DNA from: a virus
Length of the DNA: 46,393 bases
Virus record (IMG/VR): IMGVR_UViG_3300034682_000402
Coordinates: 1 to 46,393 of that record
Direction: 5' to 3' (one strand)
Below the pieces are notes generated by a model, which did no database searches, had not been told where the DNA came from, and worked only from the letters and a program-made list of their open reading frames with translations. The translations under genes were made by a program, and so were the position numbers. Below, one piece after another: positions 1 to 44,390 of the stretch (positions are counted from its first letter, which is position 1; each line of letters starts with the position of its first letter).

Positions 1-1176
1 CTACTGCGCTGGATGAAGTGCAGCTCTGGGCTTTTGGAAGTCTGCCCGGATGAACTTGCCATAGGTCTTGAACACCATGGTTACGTCGGCATGTCCCATC
101 TGGTCGGCCATGTACCAGGGGTTGGCGCCCGCCGTCAGACGGGACGAGGCAAATGTGTGACGTATTTGGTACGGATTGCGATATGCAATTCCCGCACGCT
201 GCATCAGAGGCAGCCAGGCCACTCTGCGGATCTGGGCATCTGTTTGCCACGGCGTCAGTGTGCGCTGGTTCAGCCACACCCGCCGGCCACGCTCAAAGCT
301 GATAGCTTTTTGCGCTAACAGCGCTTGGATCGCCTCTGCGCTCAGGTCCACCGTACGTTTGCCGGATTCCGTCTTGGGGCCCTTGATCACCCCCGCTACC
401 TGGTTCTGCTCAATCCGGGCTGTCGCACGCTCCAGGTCAATGTGCTGCCACTCCAGCGCTTGCAGCTCCCCTGGGCGCAGGCCCGTTTCAAACCAGAACT
501 GGAACATCGGCCACTCATCTGCCCGGCAGGCTTGCAAGATGGTGGCGCGCTCATCGCTGGTGAAAGGGTTCACCACGTAATCGCTGGCCTTGCTGTTTTG
601 CCGGATCAGCTTTGCCAGCGCGATGCGGTCAAATGGGTTGCTGGCGATCAACTCATCATTCAATGCATCCTCAAAAACCGAGCGCAGCGGTATCAACAGG
701 TTGCGAATCGCCTTGCTGGTGCAATCCATATCGCTCACCCAATCGCGCAAGGCTGACGGTGTTACCTCTGCTAGCTTCCAGCCATTCCAGTGGCGCATGC
801 GCTCGCTCGTGATCGACTTGAAGTAACCGCGATAGGTCGATGGCGACATCTGCCCGTTGGCCACCTGCTTTTCATACAGGGCCAGCTGCTTGTTCAGCAT
901 ATCCTCCACCTTGCAAAAGCCGTCATGTTGCGCTCGGGCCTTGGGGCTGCGGGGGAAGTACTCCGAATAGTCGAAGCTGCCTTGCGCAATCTTGCGCTTG
1001 ATCTCCAGGCGCAGGTTGGCGGCGTACTGCAGGGATTGCTTGGTGATGGGGCAGGGCGCTATCAACTCACGGCACTGCTGCCCATTCCACGTAAACGCAA
1101 TCTGGATGCGGTCGCCTGTCACAAGCTTGCGGATCAGAACGCCCGCTGGCGTTGCGAGATTTGGTTTCTTATCCAT
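1..1176 (-). CDS. int: phage integrase, tyrosine recombinase
   Basis: Tyrosine recombinase of 391 aa that would catalyse site-specific integration and excision of the prophage. Residues about 10-80 resemble the DUF3596-type arm-binding domain (TWNGQQCRE, then a FDYSEYFPRS stretch). Residues 90-195 are SAM-like core binding. The catalytic domain shows R234 (TGLRPGE), K268 (GPKTESGKR), Y336-x-x-R339 (NPYQIRH, Tyr replacing the usual His), H362 (MGHADV) and nucleophile Y372 (TYGKF). The start at 1176 (MDKKPN) is chosen because the upstream extension overlaps the xis-like gene and looks non-coding. The stop is at the first window base, so an att core beyond it cannot be seen. The first 43 nt overlap the upstream excisionase-like gene, implying co-transcription. 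Confidence 0.95.
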   Translation of the reverse strand: MDKKPNLATPAGVLIRKLVTGDRIQIAFTWNGQQCRELIAPCPITKQSLQYAANLRLEIKRKIAQGSFDYSEYFPRSPKARAQHDGFCKVEDMLNKQLALYEKQVANGQMSPSTYRGYFKSITSERMRHWNGWKLAEVTPSALRDWVSDMDCTSKAIRNLLIPLRSVFEDALNDELIASNPFDRIALAKLIRQNSKASDYVVNPFTSDERATILQACRADEWPMFQFWFETGLRPGELQALEWQHIDLERATARIEQNQVAGVIKGPKTESGKRTVDLSAEAIQALLAQKAISFERGRRVWLNQRTLTPWQTDAQIRRVAWLPLMQRAGIAYRNPYQIRHTFASSRLTAGANPWYMADQMGHADVTMVFKTYGKFIRADFQKPRAALHPAQ

Positions 1177-1388
1177 TCGTCGGCCTTTCTGACGTTGACA
1201 TAAAGACGGCGGTTGATCACTGCGCAGTGCGTGCCATCCAGCCACTTACCTTCCTTCCTGCGCTGGTGCACTGCGGTGGGTGTCACGCCTGTCAGCTCGT
1301 GATACTTCGCGGCCAGCACCCACTCAGGCTCGATCGAGGGCTGCACGGTAGTGCCGGTAGATGCTTTGGGTGTAACTGTGTGTTTCAT
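1134..1388 (-). CDS. excisionase-like small DNA-binding protein
   Basis: An 84-aa protein immediately upstream of, and overlapping, integrase, which is the usual xis position. The sequence EWVLAAKYHELTGVTP...QRRKEGKWLDG followed by NRRLYVNVRKADEWI fits a winged-helix excisionase fold: helix-turn-helix, then a wing, then a closing Trp-containing helix. The start is at MKHTVTP because the longer reading (from 1436) would run through a terminator hairpin. Family identity is inferred from shape and position; another small HTH adaptor is possible. Confidence 0.75.
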   Translation of the reverse strand: MKHTVTPKASTGTTVQPSIEPEWVLAAKYHELTGVTPTAVHQRRKEGKWLDGTHCAVINRRLYVNVRKADEWIRNQISQRQRAF

Positions 1389-4572: not shown

Positions 4573-4720
4573 CCCTCTGCTGTCGTGCAGAGGGTAACGC
4601 CGCTTGTGCGGCGGGCTTTGCTGATCTTGGCAACCCGGTTTGCCTCACCCTTTGACCGTGTACGCACTTTGGCGGCTGGATACAGCGGGACACTGCGCGG
4701 AGCACCCGCCATGCCGGGTG
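4573..4720 (-). other. hairpin-rich leader, repeat-like
   Basis: Three compact inverted repeats: CCCTCTGC/GCAGAGGG (4573-4594), CGCCGC/GCGGCG with loop TTGT (4598-4613) and CACCCG/CGGGTG (4703-4720). On the minus strand the segment also reads as a peptide (KVRTRSKGEANRVAK...) that I recall as a widespread annotated hypothetical in Beta- and Gammaproteobacteria. That suggests a conserved structured element rather than a unique gene. The recollection is unverified. Confidence 0.4.
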
Positions 4721-4840
4721 ACGCTATGGCGCCGGACGAACCCCAAACCTGGGCTGGGGAGCAACATCGGCAGTGCAGGGCGAGAGCGGATAGGGAAGGC
4801 GTTGCAGTAAATTGCTCTGTCTCAACGCAGGGGAGGGGGC

Positions 4841-5955: not shown

Positions 5956-6798
5956 TTAGCTCGGAATACGAACGAGATAGTGTTCCGCATCAATTTCTGC
6001 CTGCTTACAGCAGACGTGAGAGTATTGCGGAAGCTCGGACAACAAGCTTTGAATCTCCTCCTTCTTGGATTCCAGCATCCTGCTACCTAAAACTATCGAT
6101 TTCACAGCGTCTGCAGGGAACGCGAAAAGATGCACAGCCTCTGGCCCGGCGCCGATTGTCTTGGATGCATCGGAAAGCGGGACAATCATTCTCCACTCTG
6201 CCTCATATTCCCATGCATCCCCCTTTGTCAAGAAGATAGAACCATCCTCTACGTCTGACAAAGTGAGCGAAGGGCGCTTTCTGCTATAGATAACCTTGCG
6301 CAGGTAGCGAAGTTCATCGTCAGCGTTTACCCTTCGATCGAAGAATGGGGATGTCTCATCGAATTCTATAACGAAGCCCCTGTGCGAGTCTGCGTAGTGC
6401 GCCCACATTAAAAGGTTGTCCGGATCTTCCGTAAGGCAAAGTATCCCGAAAAGCTCCTCCAGTTTTCGCGCCATAGTCTCTTGCAGGTGCGGCATCATCT
6501 GCGTAGATAGGCTGTTTAAGCTGGCGTGCAAAGTTGAAAGCTGGCTTTTGAGGAAAGCTTCCAGGGCGTGCGCAGGTATCAGCGAACGAAGCTCGTTTGG
6601 GAGCTTCGCAAGTTCCTCGGTAAGCACGCGCGGTAGCACTCGTTTAAATTCGGCGGCGGCGTAATCCGGCGTAGCGATTGCAGCTAAGTGCGGTTTGAGT
6701 TCAAAAGGATCGTTTAGTACCGCTGGCGAGGAAAAGCGAATGCACTGGTTCTGAACCACATCGGTCCGATCTGGATGTAGATACTTGTAGAGTGACAT
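5956..6798 (-). CDS. DUF2971 family protein in the rex position
   Basis: A 280-aa protein with the DUF2971 signature: N-terminal LYKYLHPD, RFSSPAVLNDPFEL near residues 22-35, the central ILCLTEDPDNLLMWAHYAD followed by RGFVIEFD, and WEYEAEWR later. The biochemical role of the family is not established. It lies downstream of, and co-oriented with, the cI repressor, exactly where lambda carries rexAB, and ends at its own terminator. The ribosome-binding site is weak, but a promoter-like TTGCTC-17-TAAATT lies in the 221-nt gap behind cI. I infer expression in the lysogen and a possible superinfection-exclusion role. Confidence 0.8.
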   Translation of the reverse strand: MSLYKYLHPDRTDVVQNQCIRFSSPAVLNDPFELKPHLAAIATPDYAAAEFKRVLPRVLTEELAKLPNELRSLIPAHALEAFLKSQLSTLHASLNSLSTQMMPHLQETMARKLEELFGILCLTEDPDNLLMWAHYADSHRGFVIEFDETSPFFDRRVNADDELRYLRKVIYSRKRPSLTLSDVEDGSIFLTKGDAWEYEAEWRMIVPLSDASKTIGAGPEAVHLFAFPADAVKSIVLGSRMLESKKEEIQSLLSELPQYSHVCCKQAEIDAEHYLVRIPS

Positions 6799-7019: not shown

Positions 7020-7715
7020 TTAAAGCTTTTTACCGTTCCAAGCCCAGACCACACGCCCTAGTACGTTCAACTGGTGGTCGCCGTTGAGTACATCCACGGT
7101 CTTGATGTTGATGTTGTCAGAGCTGACTTCCATAGCCCCATCCATGCGGATGCGCACACGCTTGATGTAGAGCTGGCCGCGCACTTCCAGCACGTAAACG
7201 CCTTCCATGCTGGATGGGTCGCGCGAGCCGACGTCCACCAGCAGCACATCACCATCGCTGAAGGTGGGCGCCATGCTTTCGCCGTGGGCGTGTATGAATT
7301 TCAGCTCTCGAATATTACTGGGCCGGATGTGCTGGTTGATCCAGTGGGAAGACAGAGCCAGGTCGCCCACCACGTAGTCGGCATCCAGCGCTTCATTACC
7401 GGGCCCCATGCTGCCGCAGTTGGCCAGCAGAGGGATTCGGATCAGGTCTTCAGACTCCGCGATTGCTTGTGTCTGGCGGATAACTGCTGGAGTAGAAGAA
7501 GCCGCAGTCATTGAGCCTTCGCCCGTGAGTAGCCAAGCAGCGCGAACGCCAATCACGGTTTCTGCAGTCATGGCCCCGGCGCGCGAAACGCCGCGTGTTT
7601 CCCAATTTTTCACCGTCTGAGGCGATTCGTTGAGAAGACGTGCGACCGCCGACTGGCCGGAGACATCTCGCATTTGCTTGGCTGCTTGGTACAGCCGTTC
7701 AGTAGAAGCGTGCAT
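7020..7715 (-). CDS. cI: CI-type repressor, S24 autopeptidase
   Basis: A 231-aa lysogeny repressor. The N-terminal helix-turn-helix is at residues about 20-45 (SAVARLLNESPQTVKNWETRG). The C-terminal LexA/CI-type S24 peptidase has Ser147 in HGESMAP and Lys185 in YIKRV. A Cys100-Gly101 bond (LLANCGSMG) is the likely RecA-stimulated self-cleavage site. The start at 7715 (MHASTERL) is chosen because upstream codons run across the operator sites. The Shine-Dalgarno is poor, so leaderless or near-leaderless translation is possible. It is divergent from cro across an operator-rich 82-bp gap. Confidence 0.9.
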   Translation of the reverse strand: MHASTERLYQAAKQMRDVSGQSAVARLLNESPQTVKNWETRGVSRAGAMTAETVIGVRAAWLLTGEGSMTAASSTPAVIRQTQAIAESEDLIRIPLLANCGSMGPGNEALDADYVVGDLALSSHWINQHIRPSNIRELKFIHAHGESMAPTFSDGDVLLVDVGSRDPSSMEGVYVLEVRGQLYIKRVRIRMDGAMEVSSDNINIKTVDVLNGDHQLNVLGRVVWAWNGKKL

Positions 7716-7728
7716 GTGTGAAATTTTC

Positions 7729-7797
7729 TGTTTAGTAAACAAAATGTTGTTAAACGTGGTGTTTGACTTTTGTTTAAACTGAATGTTTAATTCCTGC
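7729..7797 (+). promoter_or_regulatory. operator region and PR-like cro promoter
   Basis: Contains a perfect 13-bp dyad TGTTTAGTAAACA (7729-7741), TTGTTAAAC near 7748, and TTTTGTTTAAACTGAA (7769-7784). The rightward promoter is TTGACT (7763-7768), 17-nt spacer, TTTAAT (7786-7791). The third operator overlaps the spacer, so repressor binding would block cro transcription. The predicted start falls at the cro ATG (7798). Confidence 0.7.
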
Positions 7798-8040
7798 ATG
7801 CATCAAGACGAACAGCTCATCTCTCGGCTCGGCGGCGTAGTGAAGTTCGCAACGCGCTTGGGCCTCGACCCCAAAAAAGGTGGCGCTCAGCGCGTCCAGA
7901 ACTGGAAGAGCCGTGGCATCCCTGCAGCTATCGAGCGCGATAACCCGTGGATTGCCCACGAGCGCAACTTGATGCGCAGCAGCGCCTACCTGCGCGATGC
8001 CCCCTTGCCCCAAGCGACGCAGGAGGTGGCGCATGGCTGA
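7798..8040 (+). CDS. cro: Cro-like regulator
   Basis: An 80-aa protein (MHQDEQLISRLGG) with a Cro/YdaS-type helix-turn-helix: VVKFATRLGLDPKKGGAQRVQNWKSRGIPAAIE, residues about 13-45. It is divergent from cI over shared operators. I choose ATG 7798 over ATG 7783 because 7783 lies inside the promoter between -35 and -10. The transcript would start at or next to 7798, so the message appears leaderless. The stop TGA is part of a junction motif (8020-8040) that also holds a strong ribosome-binding site and ATG for a following gene. Confidence 0.85.
   Translation: MHQDEQLISRLGGVVKFATRLGLDPKKGGAQRVQNWKSRGIPAAIERDNPWIAHERNLMRSSAYLRDAPLPQATQEVAHG
8020..8040 (+). repeat. junction repeat, left copy
   Basis: A 21-bp block (CAGGAGG..GCGCATGG.TGA) at the end of cro. 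It matches 8581-8601 at 19 of 21 positions. Both copies combine a ribosome-binding site, an ATG and the stop of the upstream gene. Confidence 0.7.
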
Positions 8041-15373: not shown

Positions 15374-15715
15374 ATGCACCAGCACAACCCAAGCACCACC
15401 CCCTCTGTTGCCAGCACCAGCACGCCCAGCAGCGGCCACAAGCTGGATCCCATCGCCGTGCTGCGCGAAGAACTGGCCGCCGCCGCCATCTGCCATGGCG
15501 TGGAGCGCGTGGATGATTTGACGGAGGAGCTGGTGCGCCGCTATGTGCAGCGGCTGGGTGGGGCGCAGATCTACGTGCCAAGTGCACGTTCGTTAGAAAA
15601 AACCAAGATGGCTGCTGAGATCCGAGAACGATTCACAGGCCGCAATGCGAGGGAGCTGGCCAAGGTGTATGGACTTACCCCAAGGCACATTCGTAGGCTA
15701 TTGATGGCCGAGTGA
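15374..15715 (+). CDS. Mor-family transcription activator
   Basis: A 113-aa protein. Residues about 60-113 match the Mor/C family of phage Mu: GGAQIYVPSARSLEKTKMAAEIRERFTGRNARELAKVYGLTPRHIRRLL, i.e. the beta strand of the dimer head and a C-terminal HTH. An N-terminal Ser/Thr/Pro-rich extension precedes it. Mor activates middle promoters and C late promoters by contacting RNA polymerase. Here the protein may switch on the late head-tail operon. Placing a Mor relative between a lambda-type terminase and portal is uncommon. Confidence 0.85.
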   Translation: MHQHNPSTTPSVASTSTPSSGHKLDPIAVLREELAAAAICHGVERVDDLTEELVRRYVQRLGGAQIYVPSARSLEKTKMAAEIRERFTGRNARELAKVYGLTPRHIRRLLMAE

Positions 15716-15737
15716 GTCCAAAGCCTTTTTGATCAAC

Positions 15738-15771
15738 TTGAAACATCTAGTCACTTATGTATGATCCAAAA
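15738..15771 (+). promoter_or_regulatory. promoter of the MTase-HerA-NurA cassette
   Basis: TTGAAA (15738-15743), 16-nt spacer, TATGAT (15760-15765). Transcription would start at about 15772, the A of the methyltransferase ATG, so the message looks leaderless. No Shine-Dalgarno precedes either candidate ATG. Confidence 0.6.
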
Positions 15772-16680
15772 ATGAGCGGACATGAGGTTTTTGCGCAACC
15801 TTGTGAAAATATTAGAAAGATCAGTTTGGCATCTGAAATAAATAAAACTGATGAAGAGGGACTAATAAAAACCCCGGTTGTCCCCCCCCTGAAATGGGCG
15901 GGAGGGAAAAGATGGTTTGCGGCTAACCACAAATCTTTAATACCTAAAGAATTTAACAAATACATCGAGCCATTTGTAGGTTCGGCTGCATTGTTTTTTG
16001 ATATGCAGCCAAAAGAAGCACTGCTGGCTGATCTGAATCAAGAGCTAATCAATCTTTACACAGTCATTCGTGATAAGCCTAAAGATTTAGCCAAGAAAAT
16101 GCGGCAGCACCAAAGGAATCATAATTTTGATTATTACTACAAAATGCGTGCTATGGATTGTCAAACTGATTTGACAAAAGCTGCACGTACTTTGTATTTG
16201 AATAGGACATGTTGGAATGGCCTGTATCGTGTGAATCTTAAGGGCGAGTTTAATGTGCCCAAAGGTACTAAAGATAAAGTCGTTGTTGATACAGATGATT
16301 TCCCGTTGCTGGCCTCGGTGCTCAAAAATATTGATTTGAAATGTCAAGATTTTGAAATAAGTATTAACTCGGCAAAAAGTGGTGATTTCTTATTTGTAGA
16401 TCCACCTTATACCGTGGCTCATAATAATAACGGATTTGTTAAATACAACCAGAATTTGTTTAGTTGGGATGATCAGATTCGTTTGAGGAATGCAGTTTTA
16501 AAGGCCGCACGTCGTGGTGTACATATTGTGGTCACAAATGCGAATCATCAATCGGTCAAAGACCTGTATGTAGATAAAGCATTCAGTGTACAAGTGGTTG
16601 CCAGGGCTTCAACAATCTCTGGTGCAAGTAAAAGTCGTGGCAAGTTTGAAGAGATAGTAATACAGGCAAATATTTCATAG
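15772..16680 (+). CDS. Dam-like DNA adenine N6-methyltransferase
   Basis: A 302-aa class I DNA adenine methyltransferase of the Dam/DpnM (D12, alpha) type. SAM-binding features are PPLKWAGGKRWF (39-49), FVGSAALFF (68-76) and LLADLNQELINLY (84-96). The catalytic motif is DPPY at 210-213. A target-recognition insert lies between (RTLYLNRTCWNGLYRVN). It would methylate adenine in a short DNA site. I start at 15772 because the in-frame ATG at 15757 lies upstream of the -10 element of the only good promoter. The DNA is much AT-richer than flanking phage genes. It is followed 14 nt later by the HerA gene, suggesting self-DNA marking for a defence module. Confidence 0.92.
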   Translation: MSGHEVFAQPCENIRKISLASEINKTDEEGLIKTPVVPPLKWAGGKRWFAANHKSLIPKEFNKYIEPFVGSAALFFDMQPKEALLADLNQELINLYTVIRDKPKDLAKKMRQHQRNHNFDYYYKMRAMDCQTDLTKAARTLYLNRTCWNGLYRVNLKGEFNVPKGTKDKVVVDTDDFPLLASVLKNIDLKCQDFEISINSAKSGDFLFVDPPYTVAHNNNGFVKYNQNLFSWDDQIRLRNAVLKAARRGVHIVVTNANHQSVKDLYVDKAFSVQVVARASTISGASKSRGKFEEIVIQANIS

Positions 16681-16694
16681 AGGAGTGCGTAGGG

Positions 16695-18758
16695 ATGAAT
16701 GTGTTAAACCGCCTTGCTAATAATGCAGCAACAAATGGCAATCCTATTGATGTATTGCGGCACTTTCTTGATAACGAGCAAAAGCAAGAAGCTGCCCGTA
16801 ATCTCGATCAAATGCGATTTGTTGGCTATGTGATTGAGCTGGGTTATGACACAGCAAAAATCATTACCAATGATCCCTATAAGGTCGCAGTAGGCGGTAT
16901 TCCACGCGGATCATTTTTGATCATGACACCCGCGAAGGAAGACAAGGCGCCACCACATTTCACCTTGCTGCGTGTGAATGGCGTCTCCCCAACGCCTCTC
17001 TCTAGCCAAGTGCAACAGACTTATTTTGAGTTGCAAAAAAAATCCATGCCCGAGCTGGATGTCTGGACGCAAAGCGAACTGCAGTGGGGCGCGCTGGACT
17101 GCGACGTGTTGGGCATGTTCTACGCAGATCCTCAGCAGATGAGTGAGTTGCGCTTTTCTGGCGACGTCAACAACGTGGTCAGCGCGCACCGCTACAAGGT
17201 TTTCTCTCCAAACGATGAACTGCTCAAGTTGATCGTAAATGGCATGGTCAAGAAAGAGCAGCAAGCTGAAATTGGCATATTGCGCACGATGGAGTGCGGG
17301 TTGTTCAGCAATGGCGCAGTTACCAATATCCCTGTCAAGATTTCCATGAAGGATTTCAAGGGCTGCCGCACGGCCATGTTTGGTAAAACTCGCCTGGGTA
17401 AATCAAACGTGGTGAAGCTGCTTGCCACAGCAATGCTTGATGCAACAGCTAATGAACAAGCTGTTGGTCAGTTAATATTTGATGTTAATGGTGAGTATGC
17501 AAATGACAACCACCAAAATCTTTCTGTAAAAACTGCTTATCCAGAAAGATGCGAGGTGTATGCGCTAACAAAGCGTCCTGGCACAGAATCCCGCCAGATG
17601 CGTTTAAATTTCTACGAGCAGACCGAATCTACTATTGATATATTAGGTGAATTTCTTGCGGCGAATAATAGAAATTCTATTTATATGTCTGGTTTTGCTA
17701 GCGTCAAGTTGCCAAGTATTGAGGAGGTTTTGTCTCTTCCACAAAACGAACAAACAAGACCTGTTAGAAAAATTTTATTTCTATGGGCTATTCTGAAAAA
17801 AGCTGGATTTAGTGTAAATGAGAGAAAGCTAAGAGATCTAGGAGTAAAAGTACCAAGATCTGGATTCTTCGATCCGGGGTTTTCGGACAAGCTGCGCCAA
17901 GTAATTTATCCTGATTCCAAAGTTGATGCATCCACAGGTAAGGCGATACTTCCACCTACACCAAATTCGTTGGATACATTGGTCCGTGAACTCGAGCTTG
18001 TAGCAAACTATAAAAGAGAAAATTCCCAGGATAAAATTTTTACAGAGCTGAGTAAATCGTCGGGTAAGCCTCTGTTTGATGCTGAAGACTCCGTTTTGTT
18101 GGATTTTCTATCTCCTGCTTCTGGGCGAGCAGGTCCATCAGTTTTGATGGCGTTCACAGATTTTCATTCACATGATGCAGGTGATTTTATTAATGAGATA
18201 AATGAACTTTTAGATAAGGGGAAGACCGTTATATTGGATTTAGGGAGTGCTTCAGATAAGATTAGGAAGTACTTTTCAGATATGTTATCTAAAGCAGTTT
18301 TCGCAAAACAAGAAGAAAAATTTGTAAACAACGCTTTGGGAAATAAGTTCGTGCAGCTGTATTTTGAAGAAGCGCACAACCTTTTCCCACCAGATGGCAA
18401 GGATCTGACGGGCGTGTACGCCCGCTTTGCCAAGGAGGGGGCCAAGTTCCACATTGGCATGGTTTATTCGACACAGTCGCCATCCACGATCAACAAAGAG
18501 TTGCTAGCCCAGACTGAAAATTTCTTTATTGGTCACCTGTCCAGTCAAGACGAAGCGAAGTCTTTGGCCCGTGTGCAAGTTGCGTTCGCTGGGGTGCAAG
18601 CAGATATCTTGCGTGCCAAGACGCCAGGCTATATGCGCATGCTCACGATGTCGCACCGTTTCGTCGTGCCGTTGCAAGCGAACTTGTTTGAAGATCGTGT
18701 GAAAGGGTTAACACCTGTGGTACTTCCGCCGTTGCCAGCAATTCCAGCTGCAATTTAA
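16695..18758 (+). CDS. HerA-family ATPase/translocase
   Basis: A 687-aa P-loop ATPase of the HerA/FtsK superfamily (DUF87-type). An N-terminal barrel-like region comes first (YVIELGYDTAKIITND...GGIPRGSFLIM, HAS-barrel position, residues about 43-77). Walker A is GKTRLGKS (230-237). LIFDVNGEYAND follows (about 258-270). Walker B is LYFEEAHNLFP near 555-565, and a sensor-like YSTQSPS lies near 595. HerA forms hexameric rings that pump DNA and pair with NurA nucleases, the product of the next gene (10 nt downstream). GAGGAG upstream of the ATG is strong. The central third is visibly AT-richer than both ends. Confidence 0.9.
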   Translation: MNVLNRLANNAATNGNPIDVLRHFLDNEQKQEAARNLDQMRFVGYVIELGYDTAKIITNDPYKVAVGGIPRGSFLIMTPAKEDKAPPHFTLLRVNGVSPTPLSSQVQQTYFELQKKSMPELDVWTQSELQWGALDCDVLGMFYADPQQMSELRFSGDVNNVVSAHRYKVFSPNDELLKLIVNGMVKKEQQAEIGILRTMECGLFSNGAVTNIPVKISMKDFKGCRTAMFGKTRLGKSNVVKLLATAMLDATANEQAVGQLIFDVNGEYANDNHQNLSVKTAYPERCEVYALTKRPGTESRQMRLNFYEQTESTIDILGEFLAANNRNSIYMSGFASVKLPSIEEVLSLPQNEQTRPVRKILFLWAILKKAGFSVNERKLRDLGVKVPRSGFFDPGFSDKLRQVIYPDSKVDASTGKAILPPTPNSLDTLVRELELVANYKRENSQDKIFTELSKSSGKPLFDAEDSVLLDFLSPASGRAGPSVLMAFTDFHSHDAGDFINEINELLDKGKTVILDLGSASDKIRKYFSDMLSKAVFAKQEEKFVNNALGNKFVQLYFEEAHNLFPPDGKDLTGVYARFAKEGAKFHIGMVYSTQSPSTINKELLAQTENFFIGHLSSQDEAKSLARVQVAFAGVQADILRAKTPGYMRMLTMSHRFVVPLQANLFEDRVKGLTPVVLPPLPAIPAAI

Positions 18759-18768
18759 GAGGTAACGC

Positions 18769-20109
18769 ATGCCATACCAATCAGGAACGCGCCTGCCAGG
18801 CGAAACTGCGTCCAAGCTCGGGCACCTTGCGGTCATTGAAAGCCCTTGGGTGCAATCCCTTGTCAAAGACTTTGAGAGTGGCCCGCAGGTCGAGGGTGAC
18901 CCCTCCAAAACCGTCTGGCACAGCTTTGACCCCACAGGGGTAGAGCCGCTCAAAAACATCTGGGTGGTCGATGGCTCTTTTGTTGCTGTCACCACAGAGC
19001 AAAAACCGCCGCGTGAAGTCTCATTCGTCAAGACTGCGCTGCTCATGCTCGATCAAGCCAAGATTGATGCCATCGACAAAGACTTTCCGCACCCGCTGCT
19101 GCTGCGTGATGTGATGAAAGACTCTGGCGTGCAGCACGCCACGGCCTTCCCGCTCAAAAACGTGCGCACCAGCATGGGCAGCAATTACGACGCTGTGCGC
19201 AACATCATTCGCGATTCAATTCGCATTGACCAAGACGGCATTTTTCACGAAACGCAAAAGTGGCTGGCCTACCGCAAGTGGGAGGATGCACCCGGTGCAA
19301 GCTCTCCTGCTTTTCAGTGCCCGCATTGCTTTGAGCAGATCGAACAGGGCCTGCCGCATGATGCAGACCAAGGCCCATGCCCGCATTGCGGTGAAGAAGT
19401 CTTTCTGTCTGACCTGTGGGGCTTTCACATGGAGATGGGCGAAGACAGCGCTGCAGATTCAATTGCGTCGTCTTACATGCTGATCATGGAGCACCTGATG
19501 CTCTTTACCGCTGTGCGCGTTTTCTGGAACCACACAGACCGCTCATTGGTCAGCAACACCCTGTTTATCAAAGATGGCCCGCTGACATTGCGCAGCCAAT
19601 ATTCAAAAATGGTGGACAACATCCGCACATTTTTGGAGTACGCCAAGCAAATTCAACGCCCGGTACACGTGGTTGGGCAGGAAAAAACAGGGTTCTTTGC
19701 AGATCATCTCAGCTCCATCGCACGTTTTGCCAAACCCGAAGAGCGTGGCGATTTGATGAGCTATGCGCCGCTCACCCACTCATACGTGCACCGTGAGGTG
19801 TACCGCTCCCCCAAGGTGCAAAACCCATATGGCTTGAAAACCAATTGGGGCGAAAAACTTTACGTCAAGCTGGACCCTGCCAGTTGGATCGTGCTGAACG
19901 TGCCACCGGGCGCATACAACGCAGATCCAGAGTGGCCAACTCAAACAGACCTGATTGGCCTTGATCGCATCTTGGCGACATTGCCATCACTGGTCAGCCA
20001 TAAATTTGAATGTGCGCTTTATCCGGTGGAGTTGGCGAATGGGATTGCATCGATGTCTAGTTATCCATCGGCATCGATTTTGAAGAATTTTCTTAAAGCG
20101 AATAGTTAA
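18769..20109 (+). CDS. NurA-family nuclease with zinc ribbon
   Basis: A 446-aa RNase H-fold nuclease. NurA hallmarks are WVVDGS (65-70, catalytic Asp68), FIKDGPL (266-272, Asp269), VVGQEKTG (301-308, Lys306) and a C-terminal segment ending in a YPVELANGIA-type helix. NurA acts as a dimeric 5' end nuclease on DNA fed by HerA. Between the first two motifs is an inserted CPHC...CPHCG ribbon (C184, C187, C204, C207), likely zinc-binding, which I do not recall as standard in NurA. The base composition is closer to the phage than that of the next two genes. AGAGG upstream supports the start. Confidence 0.82.
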   Translation: MPYQSGTRLPGETASKLGHLAVIESPWVQSLVKDFESGPQVEGDPSKTVWHSFDPTGVEPLKNIWVVDGSFVAVTTEQKPPREVSFVKTALLMLDQAKIDAIDKDFPHPLLLRDVMKDSGVQHATAFPLKNVRTSMGSNYDAVRNIIRDSIRIDQDGIFHETQKWLAYRKWEDAPGASSPAFQCPHCFEQIEQGLPHDADQGPCPHCGEEVFLSDLWGFHMEMGEDSAADSIASSYMLIMEHLMLFTAVRVFWNHTDRSLVSNTLFIKDGPLTLRSQYSKMVDNIRTFLEYAKQIQRPVHVVGQEKTGFFADHLSSIARFAKPEERGDLMSYAPLTHSYVHREVYRSPKVQNPYGLKTNWGEKLYVKLDPASWIVLNVPPGAYNADPEWPTQTDLIGLDRILATLPSLVSHKFECALYPVELANGIASMSSYPSASILKNFLKANS

Positions 20110-21222
20110 ATGGATGGTGGTGCTCCTGTGGTGATGGAAAATTCTGAAAATTCTAAGTGGTTAGCATCGCTTAGGTATGAATCTATTGTTTTCAGAAACA
20201 ATTTTAGGAAATTTCTTAATAAATGGTGGAATGCAATTTTTATTACATTTTCTTTTGTGGCATTTGCTATTCCGCCTATTTGGTATAGTGCATGGTTTCC
20301 TGATGCACAGCAAGCCTTATATCAGGAAATGCAGAATAATCAAAAAGAGGAAAAAGAAAAAAATAGTATTAAAAAGCCTGGATTTTTTCAAGTTAGCTTT
20401 CATCATATTAATGATTTTTCAGCGCCGCCACCGTGGTTATTGATCTTTACTTTGATTTATATTTTGGCTCAAGTTAAACAATTCAACATTACAGAGGAAA
20501 ATATAAAACTTAAAGCTCAAAATATTGATTTAATAAAAGACAAGTCCTCAGTTGAATCTGATATGGATAAGTTGAATACAGAGTTTGAAGACTACAAAAT
20601 TAAAGCAAGAGAAGAATTAAGTGATGAAAAGTTAGAGCACTATGATACAAGAAAACATTATTCATATTCTGTAAAACAAGAGTTGCAAAATTTCTTCACG
20701 CAAAATAAGTGGTTTGATGAGAATTATTGTAGATTTAGTTTGTATACATTTGATAAAAATTTCTCTTCAGCAAATCTAATTCATCGGTATTGCATAATTT
20801 CAAGATTCGAAAAAGCAGGTAGACTGTCCATTTCTGCCAAAGACGGTGTAATTGCTGCTGCATTGAATAATGGTGATTCTGTTTGGGTTAAAGTCATAAA
20901 GCATTCAAAAAAAGATAATAAAAAATATGAAGCAGCAATCAGAAAATGTCTTTCTGAAAATTATGGTGTAACGGTTTCTGATGAAACATTTAAAAATGTA
21001 AGGATGAAGCCTTCTGTTTATTATTGTCGATCAATTAGGCGGCAGAATGGGCTTGATTTAGGTAAGTTTGCTGTTTTTGTAATAGAAAGTGAAAATCCAG
21101 AAGCATTTACGGAAGAAATGCTAAATCAAGTTTTTAGCCAGAAAATGATTCAAATTCACAGAATGGTTGATCACTTGTCTAGGCTTGAAGCAGTCATGAA
21201 TCCAACTAAGGAGGCAGCATGA
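20110..21222 (+). CDS. two-TM coiled-coil membrane protein, candidate toxin/effector
   Basis: A 370-aa protein. Membrane helices are at about 41-61 (NAIFITFSFVAFAIPPIWYSA) and 108-122 (PWLLIFTLIYILAQV). A charged coiled coil spans about 125-175. The C-terminal domain (about 185-360) includes DGVIAAALNNGDSVWVKVI, reminiscent of a GAF-type ligand domain. It starts directly after the NurA stop (TAA-ATG), with no strong ribosome-binding site, and overlaps the Panacea gene by 4 nt. Very AT-rich. Pairing with a Panacea protein suggests a membrane-acting toxin. The alternative is a membrane sensor for the HerA-NurA complex. Confidence 0.75.
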   Translation: MDGGAPVVMENSENSKWLASLRYESIVFRNNFRKFLNKWWNAIFITFSFVAFAIPPIWYSAWFPDAQQALYQEMQNNQKEEKEKNSIKKPGFFQVSFHHINDFSAPPPWLLIFTLIYILAQVKQFNITEENIKLKAQNIDLIKDKSSVESDMDKLNTEFEDYKIKAREELSDEKLEHYDTRKHYSYSVKQELQNFFTQNKWFDENYCRFSLYTFDKNFSSANLIHRYCIISRFEKAGRLSISAKDGVIAAALNNGDSVWVKVIKHSKKDNKKYEAAIRKCLSENYGVTVSDETFKNVRMKPSVYYCRSIRRQNGLDLGKFAVFVIESENPEAFTEEMLNQVFSQKMIQIHRMVDHLSRLEAVMNPTKEAA

Positions 21223-21686
21223 GTGTACTTGAATCATTAATAATATACATTTGTTTGAATTATCCTTATGGTAATGAGCTTTCAAAAGCAAGACTAACTA
21301 AGTTAATATATTTGATGGACTGGGAAAGTTGTAAAGAAAATGGGCATCAATTAACAAATATTAATTGGTTTTTCCATAATTATGGTCCATATGTAGATGA
21401 TGTTGTTAATGAGGCGTATAAAAGTGATTATTTGAATGTTGGAGGGGAATTGAACTTTTATGGTGAGAGGAAAGAAGTTATTTATTTGGATGATGAAAAT
21501 AATGTCGATCCGAACTTGGATAATTACCAAATATCAATTGCAAATAAAGTTTTAAATGATACTAGACATATGTTTTGGAATGAGTTTATTGCGTACGTTT
21601 ATTCAACACCTCCAGTAGTCAGAGCTAATAGGTATGAGCACTTAAATTTAGTGGCACAAGCACATCGGATGAGACGGGAGGGATAG
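21219..21686 (+). CDS. Panacea (SocA/DUF4065) domain protein, candidate antitoxin
   Basis: A 155-aa protein. Residues about 15-75 carry the Panacea/SocA signature: ELSKARLTKLIYLMDWESCKENGHQLTNINWFFHNYGPYVDDVV. SocA is a proteolytic adaptor antitoxin in Caulobacter. Panacea proteins neutralise many unrelated toxins (PanTA systems), including membrane-disrupting ones. AAGGAGG before ATG 21219 and the ATGA overlap with the TM gene indicate coupled translation, the standard toxin-antitoxin layout. It closes the AT-rich island. Confidence 0.85.
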   Translation: MSVLESLIIYICLNYPYGNELSKARLTKLIYLMDWESCKENGHQLTNINWFFHNYGPYVDDVVNEAYKSDYLNVGGELNFYGERKEVIYLDDENNVDPNLDNYQISIANKVLNDTRHMFWNEFIAYVYSTPPVVRANRYEHLNLVAQAHRMRREG

Positions 21687-21724
21687 TCATCTGGTCAATT
21701 TTGAATCTGGGGTATAGTTAGGAC

Positions 21725-21811: not shown

Positions 21812-21983
21812 GCTTTCTAAGCGTGTCTGCGCACGCACACGGCTCCGGTTTACGGTGGGCCGTGTGGGGACACCCGCAAGGGTGTGCCGGATCCTTGACC
21901 CGGTCGACCAACCCTGCACGGTCCACCACCTTCTCTTGGTCGGGGAGGTGATGGGTTCAAAACTCGTCGTCAAGGAGCCTGTC
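21812..21983 (+). promoter_or_regulatory. structured leader of rha1
   Basis: Contains the target of the upstream short RNA (CCTTGACCCGGTCGACCAAC, 21893-21912), a hairpin GACACCC/GGGTGTG near 21870-21886, and pairing of CCACCACCT with AGGTGATGG near 21921-21953. An in-frame upstream ATG (21951) with a too-close GAGG precedes the preferred start, which has AAGGAG six nt before it. Confidence 0.5.
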
Positions 21984-22808
21984 ATGGCTGACACCTCTCT
22001 CGGTTCTTCTGCATCCGCCGTTTCCGCTCGCCCTGAGCTTTCGATCCACAACGGCATCGTCACCACCACCAGCGTTCAAGTCGCACAGTTCTTTGGCAAG
22101 CGCCATGACAACGTGCTGCGTGCGATCCGTGTTTTGCTCCGTGAAGGTGCGTCTGCGGATTACCTCCTCAATTTTGAGGAGGTAATCATGGACTTCACGA
22201 ATGGCAAGGGTGGCGTGCAAAGTGGCACTGCCTACCGCATGACCCGTGAAGGCTTCATGCTCCTCGCCATGGGCTTCACCGGCAAAGAGGCGCTGCGCTG
22301 GAAGCTGGCCTTCATCGCCGCCTTCAACCGGATGGAGGCCGAGCTGCAAAAGCCCGCCTACGACCCCGCCCGCATCCAGCTGGCCCACAGCCTGGCCGCT
22401 CAGGCCGCCGCGCAAGTCACCCAGACCGTGTTTGATGCCATTGCCTCCGGCCGCGACAGCGACTGGCGCCGCGTGCGCTACCTGCTCAGCTTCGGCTACG
22501 ACCGCGACGGCCAGCCCACCATCCCCCAGGCGCAGGTGGTGGGGGATGACCAGATGGTCACCTCCCTCAACGCGCTCATCCAGCACATCACCAAGCACGA
22601 CGTCATCCCCTCCGACGCGCAACTGGCCGCGCTGGTCACCGCCTGCGCCCAGCAACTCTCCGAACGCGCCCAGGTGCGCGAGTTGCGCGCCGCCACCAAA
22701 GCCAGCGCTGCCCCAGCCTCCACCGCTGTGGCCGCGCCCATACCACCCCACATCGGGCTCGACGGCAAGCCACTGCCCCCCGGCACCTTCCGCGCCGTGT
22801 TTGTATGA
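21984..22808 (+). CDS. rha: Rha-family phage regulator 1
   Basis: A 274-aa protein. Residues about 20-115 match the pRha family: LSIHNGIVTTTSVQVAQFFGKRHDNVLRAIR, LLNFEEV, YRMTREGFMLLAMGFTGKEALRWKLAFIAAFNRMEAEL. Rha proteins are antirepressor-like phage regulators; lambdoid rha products interfere with growth in some hosts. The C-terminal 150 residues (DWRRVRYLLSFGYDRDGQP...) are shared with the second Rha at 43.4 kb, ending in the same DGKPLPPGTFRAVFV. ATG 21984 follows AAGGAG. A 14-bp perfect inverted repeat lies inside the gene before an internal Met69 with its own Shine-Dalgarno. Confidence 0.9.
   Translation: MADTSLGSSASAVSARPELSIHNGIVTTTSVQVAQFFGKRHDNVLRAIRVLLREGASADYLLNFEEVIMDFTNGKGGVQSGTAYRMTREGFMLLAMGFTGKEALRWKLAFIAAFNRMEAELQKPAYDPARIQLAHSLAAQAAAQVTQTVFDAIASGRDSDWRRVRYLLSFGYDRDGQPTIPQAQVVGDDQMVTSLNALIQHITKHDVIPSDAQLAALVTACAQQLSERAQVRELRAATKASAAPASTAVAAPIPPHIGLDGKPLPPGTFRAVFV
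22158..22187 (+). repeat. perfect inverted repeat covering an internal ribosome-binding site
   Basis: GATTACCTCCTCAA-TT-TTGAGGAGGTAATC: 14-bp arms with a 2-nt centre. The right arm contains GAGGAGGT five nt before an in-frame ATG (22188, Met69 of Rha). As RNA the arm would hide that Shine-Dalgarno. Confidence 0.8.
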
Positions 22809-43341: not shown

Positions 43342-43390
43342 AAAAGTGCTGCTAGCGCTTATCAAGAAAGCGCTAACAGCTATCAAATTA
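43342..43390. repeat. dispersed palindromic element, copy C
   Basis: TAGCGCTT (43353-43360) and AAGCGCTA (43368-43375), flanked by AAAAGTGCTGC and ACAGCTATCAAAT. Closest to copy A; immediately downstream of rha2. Confidence 0.7.
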
Positions 43391-43398
43391 AACATGCA

Positions 43399-44202
43399 TC
43401 ACACAAACACCGCGCGGAACGTGCCGGGTGGCAGGGGCTTGCCATCGTGGCCGATGCGCGGTGATACGGGTGCTGCCACGTTGGCCGGTGCCGCAGTTGG
43501 GGCGGAAGCCGCCACCGCAGTGGTTGCGCGGCGCTCGCGGATCTGGGCGCGTTCGGACAGGCGCTGGGTGCAGGCCGAGGCCAGGGCCGCCAGCTGCGTG
43601 TCGCTGGGCATGATGTCGCCCTTGGCAATGTGCTGCGTCAGCTCGGGCAGGGACGCAATGATTTGCCCATCGGTCACCGCCTTGGCCAGCGGCAGGCTGG
43701 GCTGGCCGCTTTGGTCGTAGCCAAAACTCAGCAGATAGCGGGCGCGGCGCCAGTCGGCGGTGTTGCCGGACAGCACCGCATCCAGCACCGTTTGCATCAC
43801 CTGCGCGCCGGCTTGGCTGGCCAGCGTTTGGGCCAGTTGCAGGCGCTGGGCGTCGGGGGCGGGTTGCTTTTGCAGCTCAGCCTCCATGCGGTTGAAGGCG
43901 TCGATGTAGGCCAGCTTGAATGCCAGGGCCTTCTTGCCGGTGAAGCCCATGGCCAGCAGCGTGAAGCCGTCGCGGGTGAGGCGGTAGGCGGGATAGCGTT
44001 GACCGTTTTGCTCGTCTGTTACATGGGTCTCCTCAAAATTGAGGACACCCCCTGTAGTTAGCTGAGGGAGAAGATTGCGAATGTCGCGCAGTACGTTGGC
44101 GTGCAATTTGCCAAAGTAGCGCGCCAGGTCAGTGCTGAGGGTGGTGGGTTTGCCGTCAACGACGGTGATGGCGGGCGAGATAGCCAGTGCGGACTGAGAC
44201 AT
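43399..44202 (-). CDS. rha: Rha-family phage regulator 2
   Basis: A 267-aa paralogue of the product at 22 kb. The N-terminal pRha domain is ITVVDGKPTTLSTDLARYFGKLHANVLRDIRNLL, LNFEETHV, YRLTRDGFTLLAMGFTGKKALAFKLAYIDAFNRMEAEL. The C-terminal half is aligned throughout with Rha1 (DWRRARYLLSFGYDQSGQPSLPLAKAVTD) and ends identically. ATG 44202 has GGAG seven nt upstream (GGAGCACCTT). It is preceded by a C4-like leader and followed by palindromic element C. The N-terminal region differs more than the C-terminal one, so target specificity may have diverged. Confidence 0.9.
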   Translation of the reverse strand: MSQSALAISPAITVVDGKPTTLSTDLARYFGKLHANVLRDIRNLLPQLTTGGVLNFEETHVTDEQNGQRYPAYRLTRDGFTLLAMGFTGKKALAFKLAYIDAFNRMEAELQKQPAPDAQRLQLAQTLASQAGAQVMQTVLDAVLSGNTADWRRARYLLSFGYDQSGQPSLPLAKAVTDGQIIASLPELTQHIAKGDIMPSDTQLAALASACTQRLSERAQIRERRATTAVAASAPTAAPANVAAPVSPRIGHDGKPLPPGTFRAVFV

Positions 44203-44390
44203 AAGGTGCTCCGTGATGAGACTTGTGAAGCCTTGCCACAGCGTTCTTACGCACTGAGACAAGGTGGCCGGGAGGTTAAGAACCTAGATCACGCTAGGCG
44301 GACTTCTTCCCCTTGCGGGTGTTGTATCCGTCGCCCTCCCGGCCAAAAAATCAGCACCTGCAAGGGGGCAGGCGCGCAATGTCCGGGCGC
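44203..44390 (-). promoter_or_regulatory. structured leader of rha2
   Basis: Contains the target GCGTGATCTAGGTTCTTAACC (plus 44274-44294 as its complement), which can pair with the upstream short RNA. A 10-bp stem GGCCGGGAGG / CCTCCCGGCC joins 44335-44344 to 44266-44275. A second copy of GCGTAAGAAC (44243-44252) gives an alternative partner for TTCTTA. Mutually exclusive pairings could expose or hide the rha2 start. Confidence 0.5.

What the first reader, a model, noticed from the sequence alone, without database searches (positions are those of the whole stretch)
15772..21686. Five-gene cassette in a prophage: Dam-like MTase, HerA, zinc-ribbon NurA, two-TM protein, Panacea
Seen: five co-oriented genes with gaps of 14, 10 and 0 nt and one 4-nt overlap, AT-richer than flanking genes, with their own promoter, placed between a large terminase/Mor gene and head genes. 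Known: HerA-NurA pairs process DNA ends, HerA partners with several nucleases in anti-phage systems, and adjacent methyltransferases often mark self DNA. Inference: a defence system in which methylation protects host and prophage DNA while HerA-NurA degrades unmodified DNA. The TM-Panacea pair would be a fail-safe or membrane sensor. I know of no named system with this exact set.
Basis: partly seen in the sequence, partly recalled or inferred. Interest (0 to 1): 0.93.

Follow-up and report, generated by a model that had tools for sequence, protein, structure and literature searches.

The report
Methylase-guarded HerA-NurA restriction system
A prophage carries, in a slot that related prophages fill with other anti-virus genes, a three-gene unit (a DNA-marking enzyme, a DNA pump and a nuclease) that recurs across bacteria and archaea and probably destroys DNA lacking the mark, plus a separate two-gene membrane module.

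Summary
The five genes are there, with the stated spacing and low G+C; the claimed promoter is no better than chance. They are two modules, not one system.

Core: Dam/DpnM-type adenine methyltransferase, HerA, zinc-ribbon NurA. Among genome loci with close HerA relatives, the methyltransferase lies directly upstream in 72/76 and NurA directly downstream in 71/72, across 16 named phyla including archaea. Their divergence is correlated (Mantel r 0.77-0.90), and methyltransferase type changes once on the HerA tree while phylum changes at least 25 times. HerA's closest solved relative is TdpA (2.5e-41); the NurA model's closest fold is TdpB (4e-9). So this is a TdpAB-like pump-nuclease paired with an m6A methyltransferase. 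PADLOC-DB 2023 has no model for this NurA, and no paper held describes the set.

Add-on: the 2-TM protein and Panacea occur only in this copy. Three Panacea homologues elsewhere each have a similar 2-TM partner overlapping upstream: probably a toxin-antitoxin-like pair.

Location: close relatives carry PD-Lambda-5, retron, AbiL-like or KAP cargo in the same mor-rha slot; backbone homology stops at about 15,579 and resumes at about 21,718. Defence is well supported; methylation-gated degradation is inferred, untested.

The parts
15580..21717 (.). exchangeable cargo slot between mor and rha; boundaries are where homology to related prophages stops and resumes
   Evidence: blastn against L091, L092, L099, L107: homology ends at 15561-15579 (inside mor) and resumes at 21718-21724; relatives hold other cargo there
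15772..16680 (+). Dam/DpnM-type N6-adenine DNA methyltransferase (alternative start 15757); module 1
   Evidence: MethyltransfD12 1e-49; Dam TIGR00571 2.3e-70; M.DpnII 2dpm 4.5e-59, EcoDam 2g1p 4.8e-29
16216..16260 (+). predicted target-recognition segment NGLYRVNLKGEFNVP, as in the GATC enzymes DpnM and Dam
   Evidence: alignments; conserved in 43 type-A loci
16399..16410 (+). catalytic motif DPPY (residues 210-213 from the start at 15772)
   Evidence: invariant in 63 sequences
16695..18758 (+). HerA/TdpA-type hexameric DNA pump ATPase (687 aa); module 1
   Evidence: DUF87 1.8e-11; TdpA 8wet 1.9e-30 single sequence, 2.5e-41 profile
17382..17408 (+). Walker A, GKTRLGKSN with K236
   Evidence: G230, T232, R233, G235-N238 invariant in 43 sequences
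18360..18377 (+). Walker B region YFEEAH
   Evidence: Y556, E558-H561 invariant
18769..20109 (+). NurA/TdpB-type nuclease with internal zinc ribbon (446 aa); module 1
   Evidence: AlphaFold model pLDDT 88.5; Foldseek: TdpB 8wfd_G 4.1e-9, NurA 7f6d 6.8e-6, 1zup 3.7e-5, 9x1n 5.8e-5
18970..18972 (+). predicted catalytic Asp68 codon
   Evidence: D68 invariant in 67 sequences
19318..19389 (+). zinc ribbon C184-x2-C187 ... C204-x2-C207
   Evidence: C204, C207 invariant, C184, C187 at least 90%
20110..21222 (+). two-TM, coiled-coil protein with a conserved soluble C-terminal domain; module 2, likely toxin or sensor partner of Panacea
   Evidence: hydrophobic segments at residues 42-60 and 104-122; C-terminal pattern shared with partners of three other Panacea proteins
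21219..21686 (+). Panacea (SocA-like, DUF4065) antitoxin-type protein; module 2
   Evidence: PF13274 1.4e-12; homologues 37-40% identical, each of three with an overlapping 2-TM partner
15374..15715 (+). mor: Mor-family activator, left border of the slot
   Evidence: PF08765 1e-13; present left of the slot in relatives
21984..22808 (+). rha: Rha-type phage regulator, right border of the slot
   Evidence: PF09669 7.9e-25; present right of the slot in relatives

Best explanation
The cargo is two modules. The core (MTase, HerA, NurA) is a restriction-modification-like defence system. The MTase marks adenines in its site, predicted GATC, in host and prophage DNA. HerA assembles as a hexameric dsDNA pump coupled to NurA, as in TdpAB and canonical HerA-NurA, and the complex degrades DNA that lacks the mark. 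Self/non-self discrimination probably happens in the pump-nuclease complex during loading or translocation, because no separate sequence-specific endonuclease is present. The 2-TM/Panacea pair is a separate toxin-antitoxin-like or sensor module captured into the same slot, possibly a back-up. Shown by computation: gene content, conserved co-linearity, co-inheritance, TdpA/TdpB kinship, hotspot location. Inferred: the anti-phage effect, GATC specificity, protection of DNA from HerA-NurA by methylation, and the toxin role.
For: Conserved operon order, MTase upstream in 72/76 and NurA downstream in 71/72 loci. Correlated divergence, Mantel r 0.77, 0.77, 0.90, no permutation of 2,000 as high. MTase type changes once on the HerA tree against at least 25 phylum changes. 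TdpA as closest solved HerA and TdpB as closest fold of the NurA model. DpnM/Dam-like recognition segment. Slot shared with PD-Lambda-5, retron, AbiL-like, KAP and other defence cargo in sister prophages. ORFs beside genomic copies match 159 PADLOC families against 28 for an equal number of control ORFs. The 2-TM/Panacea pair recurs without HerA-NurA in the DNA examined.
Against: No activity data of any kind. A related pump-nuclease with a methylase serves DNA donation in Thermus. Three cyanobacterial plasmid relatives have HerA-NurA with no MTase next door, and L043, L076, L080 and L082 lack it directly upstream, so the MTase is not always adjacent. How a nuclease complex would read methylation in sparse GATC sites is unknown. 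The PADLOC comparison counts models, not genes.
Confidence: 0.66

Rival explanations
1. The MTase-HerA-NurA unit is a DNA transfer machine like the Thermus ICETh1 donation system: the HerA-type pump and NurA move DNA out of the cell, and the methylase is auxiliary.
For: In T. thermophilus ICETh1, the HerA-like TdtA is encoded with a NurA-like nuclease, a type IIG enzyme and a N4/N6 methylase; loss of TdtA, NurA or the type IIG enzyme impairs donation (PMC5365140, PMC7767461). A Meiothermus copy of the present unit exists (L049).
Against: ICETh1 gene order differs (NurA upstream of TdtA, methylase downstream of PF01555 type, against PF02086 here). No relaxase, integrase or mating genes form a constant part of the 80 loci. 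The prophage slot holds defence cargo in sister phages.
Confidence: 0.1
2. HerA-NurA is a DNA-end repair or recombination pair carried by the prophage for its own replication, and the MTase is an unrelated orphan that protects phage DNA from host restriction.
For: Canonical HerA-NurA acts in end resection (papers). Phages often carry Dam-like orphan MTases (general knowledge; PADLOC orphan MTase models also match).
Against: This HerA is much closer to TdpA than to repair HerA (2.5e-41 against 9.6e-14 for 4d2i). MTase and HerA-NurA stay adjacent and co-inherited over many phyla, mostly outside phages. The slot holds other cargo in close relatives, which therefore do without it.
Confidence: 0.08
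3. All five genes form one integrated defence system in which the membrane protein senses failure of the core and Panacea holds it in check.
For: Gaps of 14, 10, 0 and -4 nt suggest co-transcription; all five lie inside one exchanged block.
Against: The last two genes are absent from all 89 other loci with the core and their relatives stand alone elsewhere. Sister prophages show that the slot collects unrelated cargo.
Confidence: 0.12

Closest known systems
TdpABC (phosphorothioate-based defence; TdpAB structures 8wet, 8wfd, 8y1k)
   Same: HerA is closest to TdpA by sequence and NurA closest to TdpB by fold; both systems pair the pump-nuclease with a DNA-modifying gene (TdpABC biology from memory).
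   Different: The modification gene is an adenine methyltransferase, not TdpC; NurA carries a zinc ribbon and shows no sequence-level match to TdpB.
Type II restriction-modification systems of Dam/DpnM type (for example DpnII)
   Same: GATC-type m6A methyltransferase beside a nuclease.
   Different: The nuclease side is an ATPase pump plus NurA, not a sequence-specific restriction endonuclease.
HerA-coupled anti-phage systems (Sir2-HerA, DUF4297-HerA; PADLOC HerA models)
   Same: HerA-family pump joined to an effector enzyme; weak PADLOC HerA matches (1.1e-19 at best).
   Different: The effector is NurA-type, a methyltransferase is part of the unit, and HerA is closer to TdpA.
Thermus ICETh1 DNA-donation operon (TdtA, NurA-like, methylase, TthHB27I)
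   Same: HerA-like pump, NurA-like nuclease and a DNA methylase in one operon on a mobile element (PMC5365140).
   Different: Other gene order, other methylase family, extra type IIG enzyme, function in DNA export.
PanAT toxin-antitoxin pairs
   Same: Panacea gene overlapping a partner gene; some PanT partners are membrane-acting (PMC8832971).
   Different: Toxicity and neutralisation untested; this 2-TM/coiled-coil partner was not matched to a published PanT cluster.

Membership tests
TdpABC | TdpA-type HerA pump | tested here: met
   Best PDB profile match TdpA 2.5e-41, next 3.9e-18
TdpABC | TdpB/NurA-type nuclease partner | tested here: met
   Fold search best match TdpB 8wfd_G 4.1e-9; next gene in 71/72 loci
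TdpABC | TdpC gene for phosphorothioate modification in the operon | tested here: not met
   The cassette has no gene besides the five described; the modification gene is a D12 methyltransferase. Not filed as TdpABC
TdpABC | phosphorothioate in host DNA | not testable with these tools
   needs DNA chemistry
Restriction-modification system | DNA methyltransferase with intact catalytic and SAM motifs | tested here: met
   DPPY and G44/K46 motif residues invariant; Pfam 1e-49
Restriction-modification system | linked, co-inherited nuclease | tested here: met
   both partners adjacent in 64/69 loci; MTase type changes once on the HerA tree
Restriction-modification system | cleavage or degradation blocked by the cognate methylation | not testable with these tools
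   needs biochemistry or plating assays
Restriction-modification system | sequence-specific restriction endonuclease | tested here: not met
   none of the five genes matches one; it works like R-M only if the pump-nuclease reads the mark
Canonical HerA-NurA repair pair | HerA and NurA in one operon | tested here: met
Canonical HerA-NurA repair pair | association with mre11-rad50 or end-resection function | tested here: inconclusive
   no constant extra neighbour beyond the MTase was seen; mre11/rad50 were not searched by name
PanAT toxin-antitoxin | Panacea domain in a two-gene overlapping unit with a small partner | tested here: met
   PF13274 1.4e-12; 4-nt overlap; same plan in L188, L190, L191
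PanAT toxin-antitoxin | partner is toxic and neutralised by Panacea | not testable with these tools
   needs expression tests
Anti-phage defence system | location in defence islands or hotspots | tested here: met
   mor-rha slot with defence cargo in sister prophages; 159 against 28 PADLOC families
Anti-phage defence system | reduces phage infection | not testable with these tools
   needs plating assays

The most novel reading that the evidence does not exclude
A distinct class of restriction-modification in which base methylation is read by the translocating HerA-NurA complex itself: a hexameric pump feeds DNA to its nuclease unless it meets adenine methylation. There would be no sequence-specific endonuclease, and pump-nuclease and MTase would be matched as cognate sets (type A GATC-like, type B another site) that move together across bacteria and archaea.
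Probability: 0.42. Interest if true: 0.86.

Novelty: new variant of a known kind. Interest (0 to 1): 0.72.

Why it matters
If right, the TdpAB-type pump-nuclease is not tied to phosphorothioation: a widespread branch uses adenine methylation as its self mark. That makes a direct question testable, namely how a HerA-NurA machine senses a small chemical mark on DNA, with natural variants (MTase types A and B) that should need different marks. It would also add a system that current defence annotation misses: PADLOC-DB 2023 gives only separate HerA and MTase models and nothing for this NurA. The mor-rha slot itself looks like a productive place to find further defence genes.

Tried and rejected
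Five genes as one conserved system: rejected, the TM and Panacea genes are unique to this copy among 90 loci. Own promoter: no better than shuffles. TM protein structure: single-sequence AlphaFold pLDDT 41.5, not interpretable; a GAF-like reading of its C-terminus is by eye only, Pfam and a PDB profile search gave nothing. NurA by sequence: Pfam, phmmer and PDB profile searches found no NurA; only the fold search did. GATC avoidance in the prophage backbone: not marked (146 observed, 174 expected), so uninformative. Viral-contig scans with single NurA, TM and Panacea sequences found no relatives. Prevalence: 1 of 399 sampled genomes in the phylum of G001 matched, and that one is the source of L008. 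Papers: no TdpABC text and no MTase-HerA-NurA system among the papers held; two older comparative-genomics papers recalled from memory were not held, so a prior mention there is not excluded. The Deinococcus m4C system of PMC10855626 is a GIY-YIG type II system, not this.

Full report
Observation. The window is a virus record of 46,393 bases. Spacing is as stated, and the stretch is AT-rich against its surroundings. The promoter claim is not supported beyond chance. Terminase and Mor are separate genes upstream; an Rha-type regulator and then head genes follow downstream.

What the proteins are. The MTase is of the D12/Dam class. Its closest solved relative is M.DpnII (4.5e-59), then E. coli Dam, and its segment NGLYRVNLKGEFNVP is nearly that of both GATC enzymes. 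GATC is therefore the predicted site, not a measured one. HerA's closest solved relative is TdpA: 1.9e-30 with the single sequence and 2.5e-41 with a 43-sequence profile, against 3.9e-18 for the next protein. The third protein has no Pfam NurA match. A confident model built from 61 homologues (pLDDT 88.5) matches TdpB in the TdpAB-DNA complex best (4.1e-9), followed by Deinococcus NurA, Thermotoga TM1739 and Thermococcus NurA. D68, E241, D269 and K306 are invariant, and a CxxC...CxxC zinc ribbon is conserved.

Conservation. A HerA alignment search of 84,980 species genomes gave at least 442 relatives; the best 80 were kept. An ORF and iterated-HMM survey shows MTase-HerA-NurA in that order in nearly all of them: MTase directly upstream in 72 of 76 loci where it could be seen, NurA directly downstream in 71 of 72, both in 64 of 69. 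Sixteen named phyla are represented, among them Pseudomonadota, Bacillota, Bacteroidota, Chloroflexota, Spirochaetota, Actinomycetota, Cyanobacteriota, Methanobacteriota and Candidatus Heimdallarchaeota. These rates hold for the HerA clade nearest the window. More distant relatives on plasmids and in a Vibrio phage pair with other MTases (L001 divergent D12; L002 and L006 PF01555), and three cyanobacterial plasmids have no MTase next door.

Co-inheritance. Pairwise divergence of the three proteins is correlated (r 0.77, 0.77, 0.90; none of 2,000 permutations as high). The MTases fall into two recognition types, A (DpnM/Dam-like) and B (KGMWR.N..FNVGYG). On the HerA tree this type changes once, while the phylum label needs at least 25 changes. 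The unit thus appears to move as a cognate set. The tree is a quick one, and bins of metagenomes can hold foreign contigs.

Location. The portal protein led to close relatives in IMG/VR. In those with terminase, mor and rha, the mor-rha interval holds different AT-rich cargo (35-43% G+C against 57-64% for the whole locus). Against L091, whose terminase and portal are 98% identical to the window's, homology stops at 15,579 and resumes at 21,724; other relatives give 15,561-15,562 and 21,718-21,723. That interval is the cassette. Cargo elsewhere matches PD-Lambda-5 (L091, L106), a retron type IV reverse transcriptase (L101), AbiL-like (L104), a NsnB/AriA-like ATPase (L096), a KAP NTPase (L105) and PDC-S49 (L107). 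The slot is a prophage defence hotspot.

Neighbourhood of genomic copies. 126 ORFs next to the core match 159 PADLOC families at 1e-15; 126 ORFs from control regions of 16 carrier genomes match 28. The counts are of families, not genes, and related models count several times, so this is a rough enrichment.

The add-on pair. Neither the 2-TM protein nor Panacea occurs in the other 89 loci. The three closest Panacea homologues examined, from a V. harveyi plasmid and two genomes, each have an overlapping upstream gene for a protein of the same plan: hydrophobic segments near the N-terminus, coiled coil, conserved soluble C-terminus. A more distant homologue sits beside a MazF-type toxin. Panacea is a known promiscuous antitoxin with some membrane-acting partners (PMC8832971). 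A toxin-antitoxin-like pair is the likeliest reading; toxicity is untested, and a GAF-like domain is only suspected.

Mechanism. Most likely the MTase marks self DNA and HerA-NurA degrades unmarked DNA, with the mark read by the pump-nuclease. This rests on kinship with TdpAB, whose modification-linked role I know from memory only. The main functional rival is DNA transfer, because Thermus ICETh1 uses a HerA-like pump and NurA for DNA donation (PMC5365140, PMC7767461). Gene order, methylase family and context differ there.

Novelty. PADLOC-DB 2023 recognises the HerA and MTase only by models of other systems or generic MTases and has none for this NurA. No held paper describes the set, but the library is partial and older comparative genomics was not available. 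I class it as a new variant of a known kind: a TdpAB-like pump-nuclease with base methylation as the likely mark.

Noticed in passing
window 21848-21933 (+): C4 antisense RNA (RF01695, 66.2 bits) just right of the cargo slot and left of rha, in the flank conserved among sister prophages.
   Followed up: partly
window 4697-4771 (+): Burkholderiales-2 cis-regulatory RNA (RF02917), which hints at a Burkholderiales host.
   Followed up: no
window 44258-44344 (-): sRNA-Xcc1 family match (RF02221, 67.3 bits) near the right end of the record.
   Followed up: no
window 43351-43996: About 73% identical, in inverted orientation, to the rha region of sister prophages: probably a second Rha-like gene on the minus strand.
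   Followed up: no
window 1-1245 (-), 7020-7799 (-), 5956-6798 (-): Tyrosine integrase with Arm-DNA-bind_2, S24-type repressor, and a DUF2971 protein: the left arm of a temperate phage.
   Followed up: no
L002 2126-5924; L001 1309-3502: HerA of the Deferribacter plasmid is interrupted by an IS200/IS605 element with TnpB, and HerA of the Vibrio phage is split into two overlapping ORFs.
   Followed up: no
L092, L095, L097, L100, L115 mor-rha intervals: Slot cargo with weak or no family matches (HATPase-like, RelA/SpoT-like, unnamed pairs): candidates for undescribed defence genes.
   Followed up: partly
L091 6148-7506 (-): A 452-aa protein without Pfam match sits beside PD-Lambda-5 A and B in the slot.
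   Followed up: no
L055 (G011:C1:2969871-2971190) and L045 (G009:C16:128409-129728): The six-frame NurA matches in these two genomes are reported with one stop codon inside; could be read-through at the end or a decayed copy.
   Followed up: no
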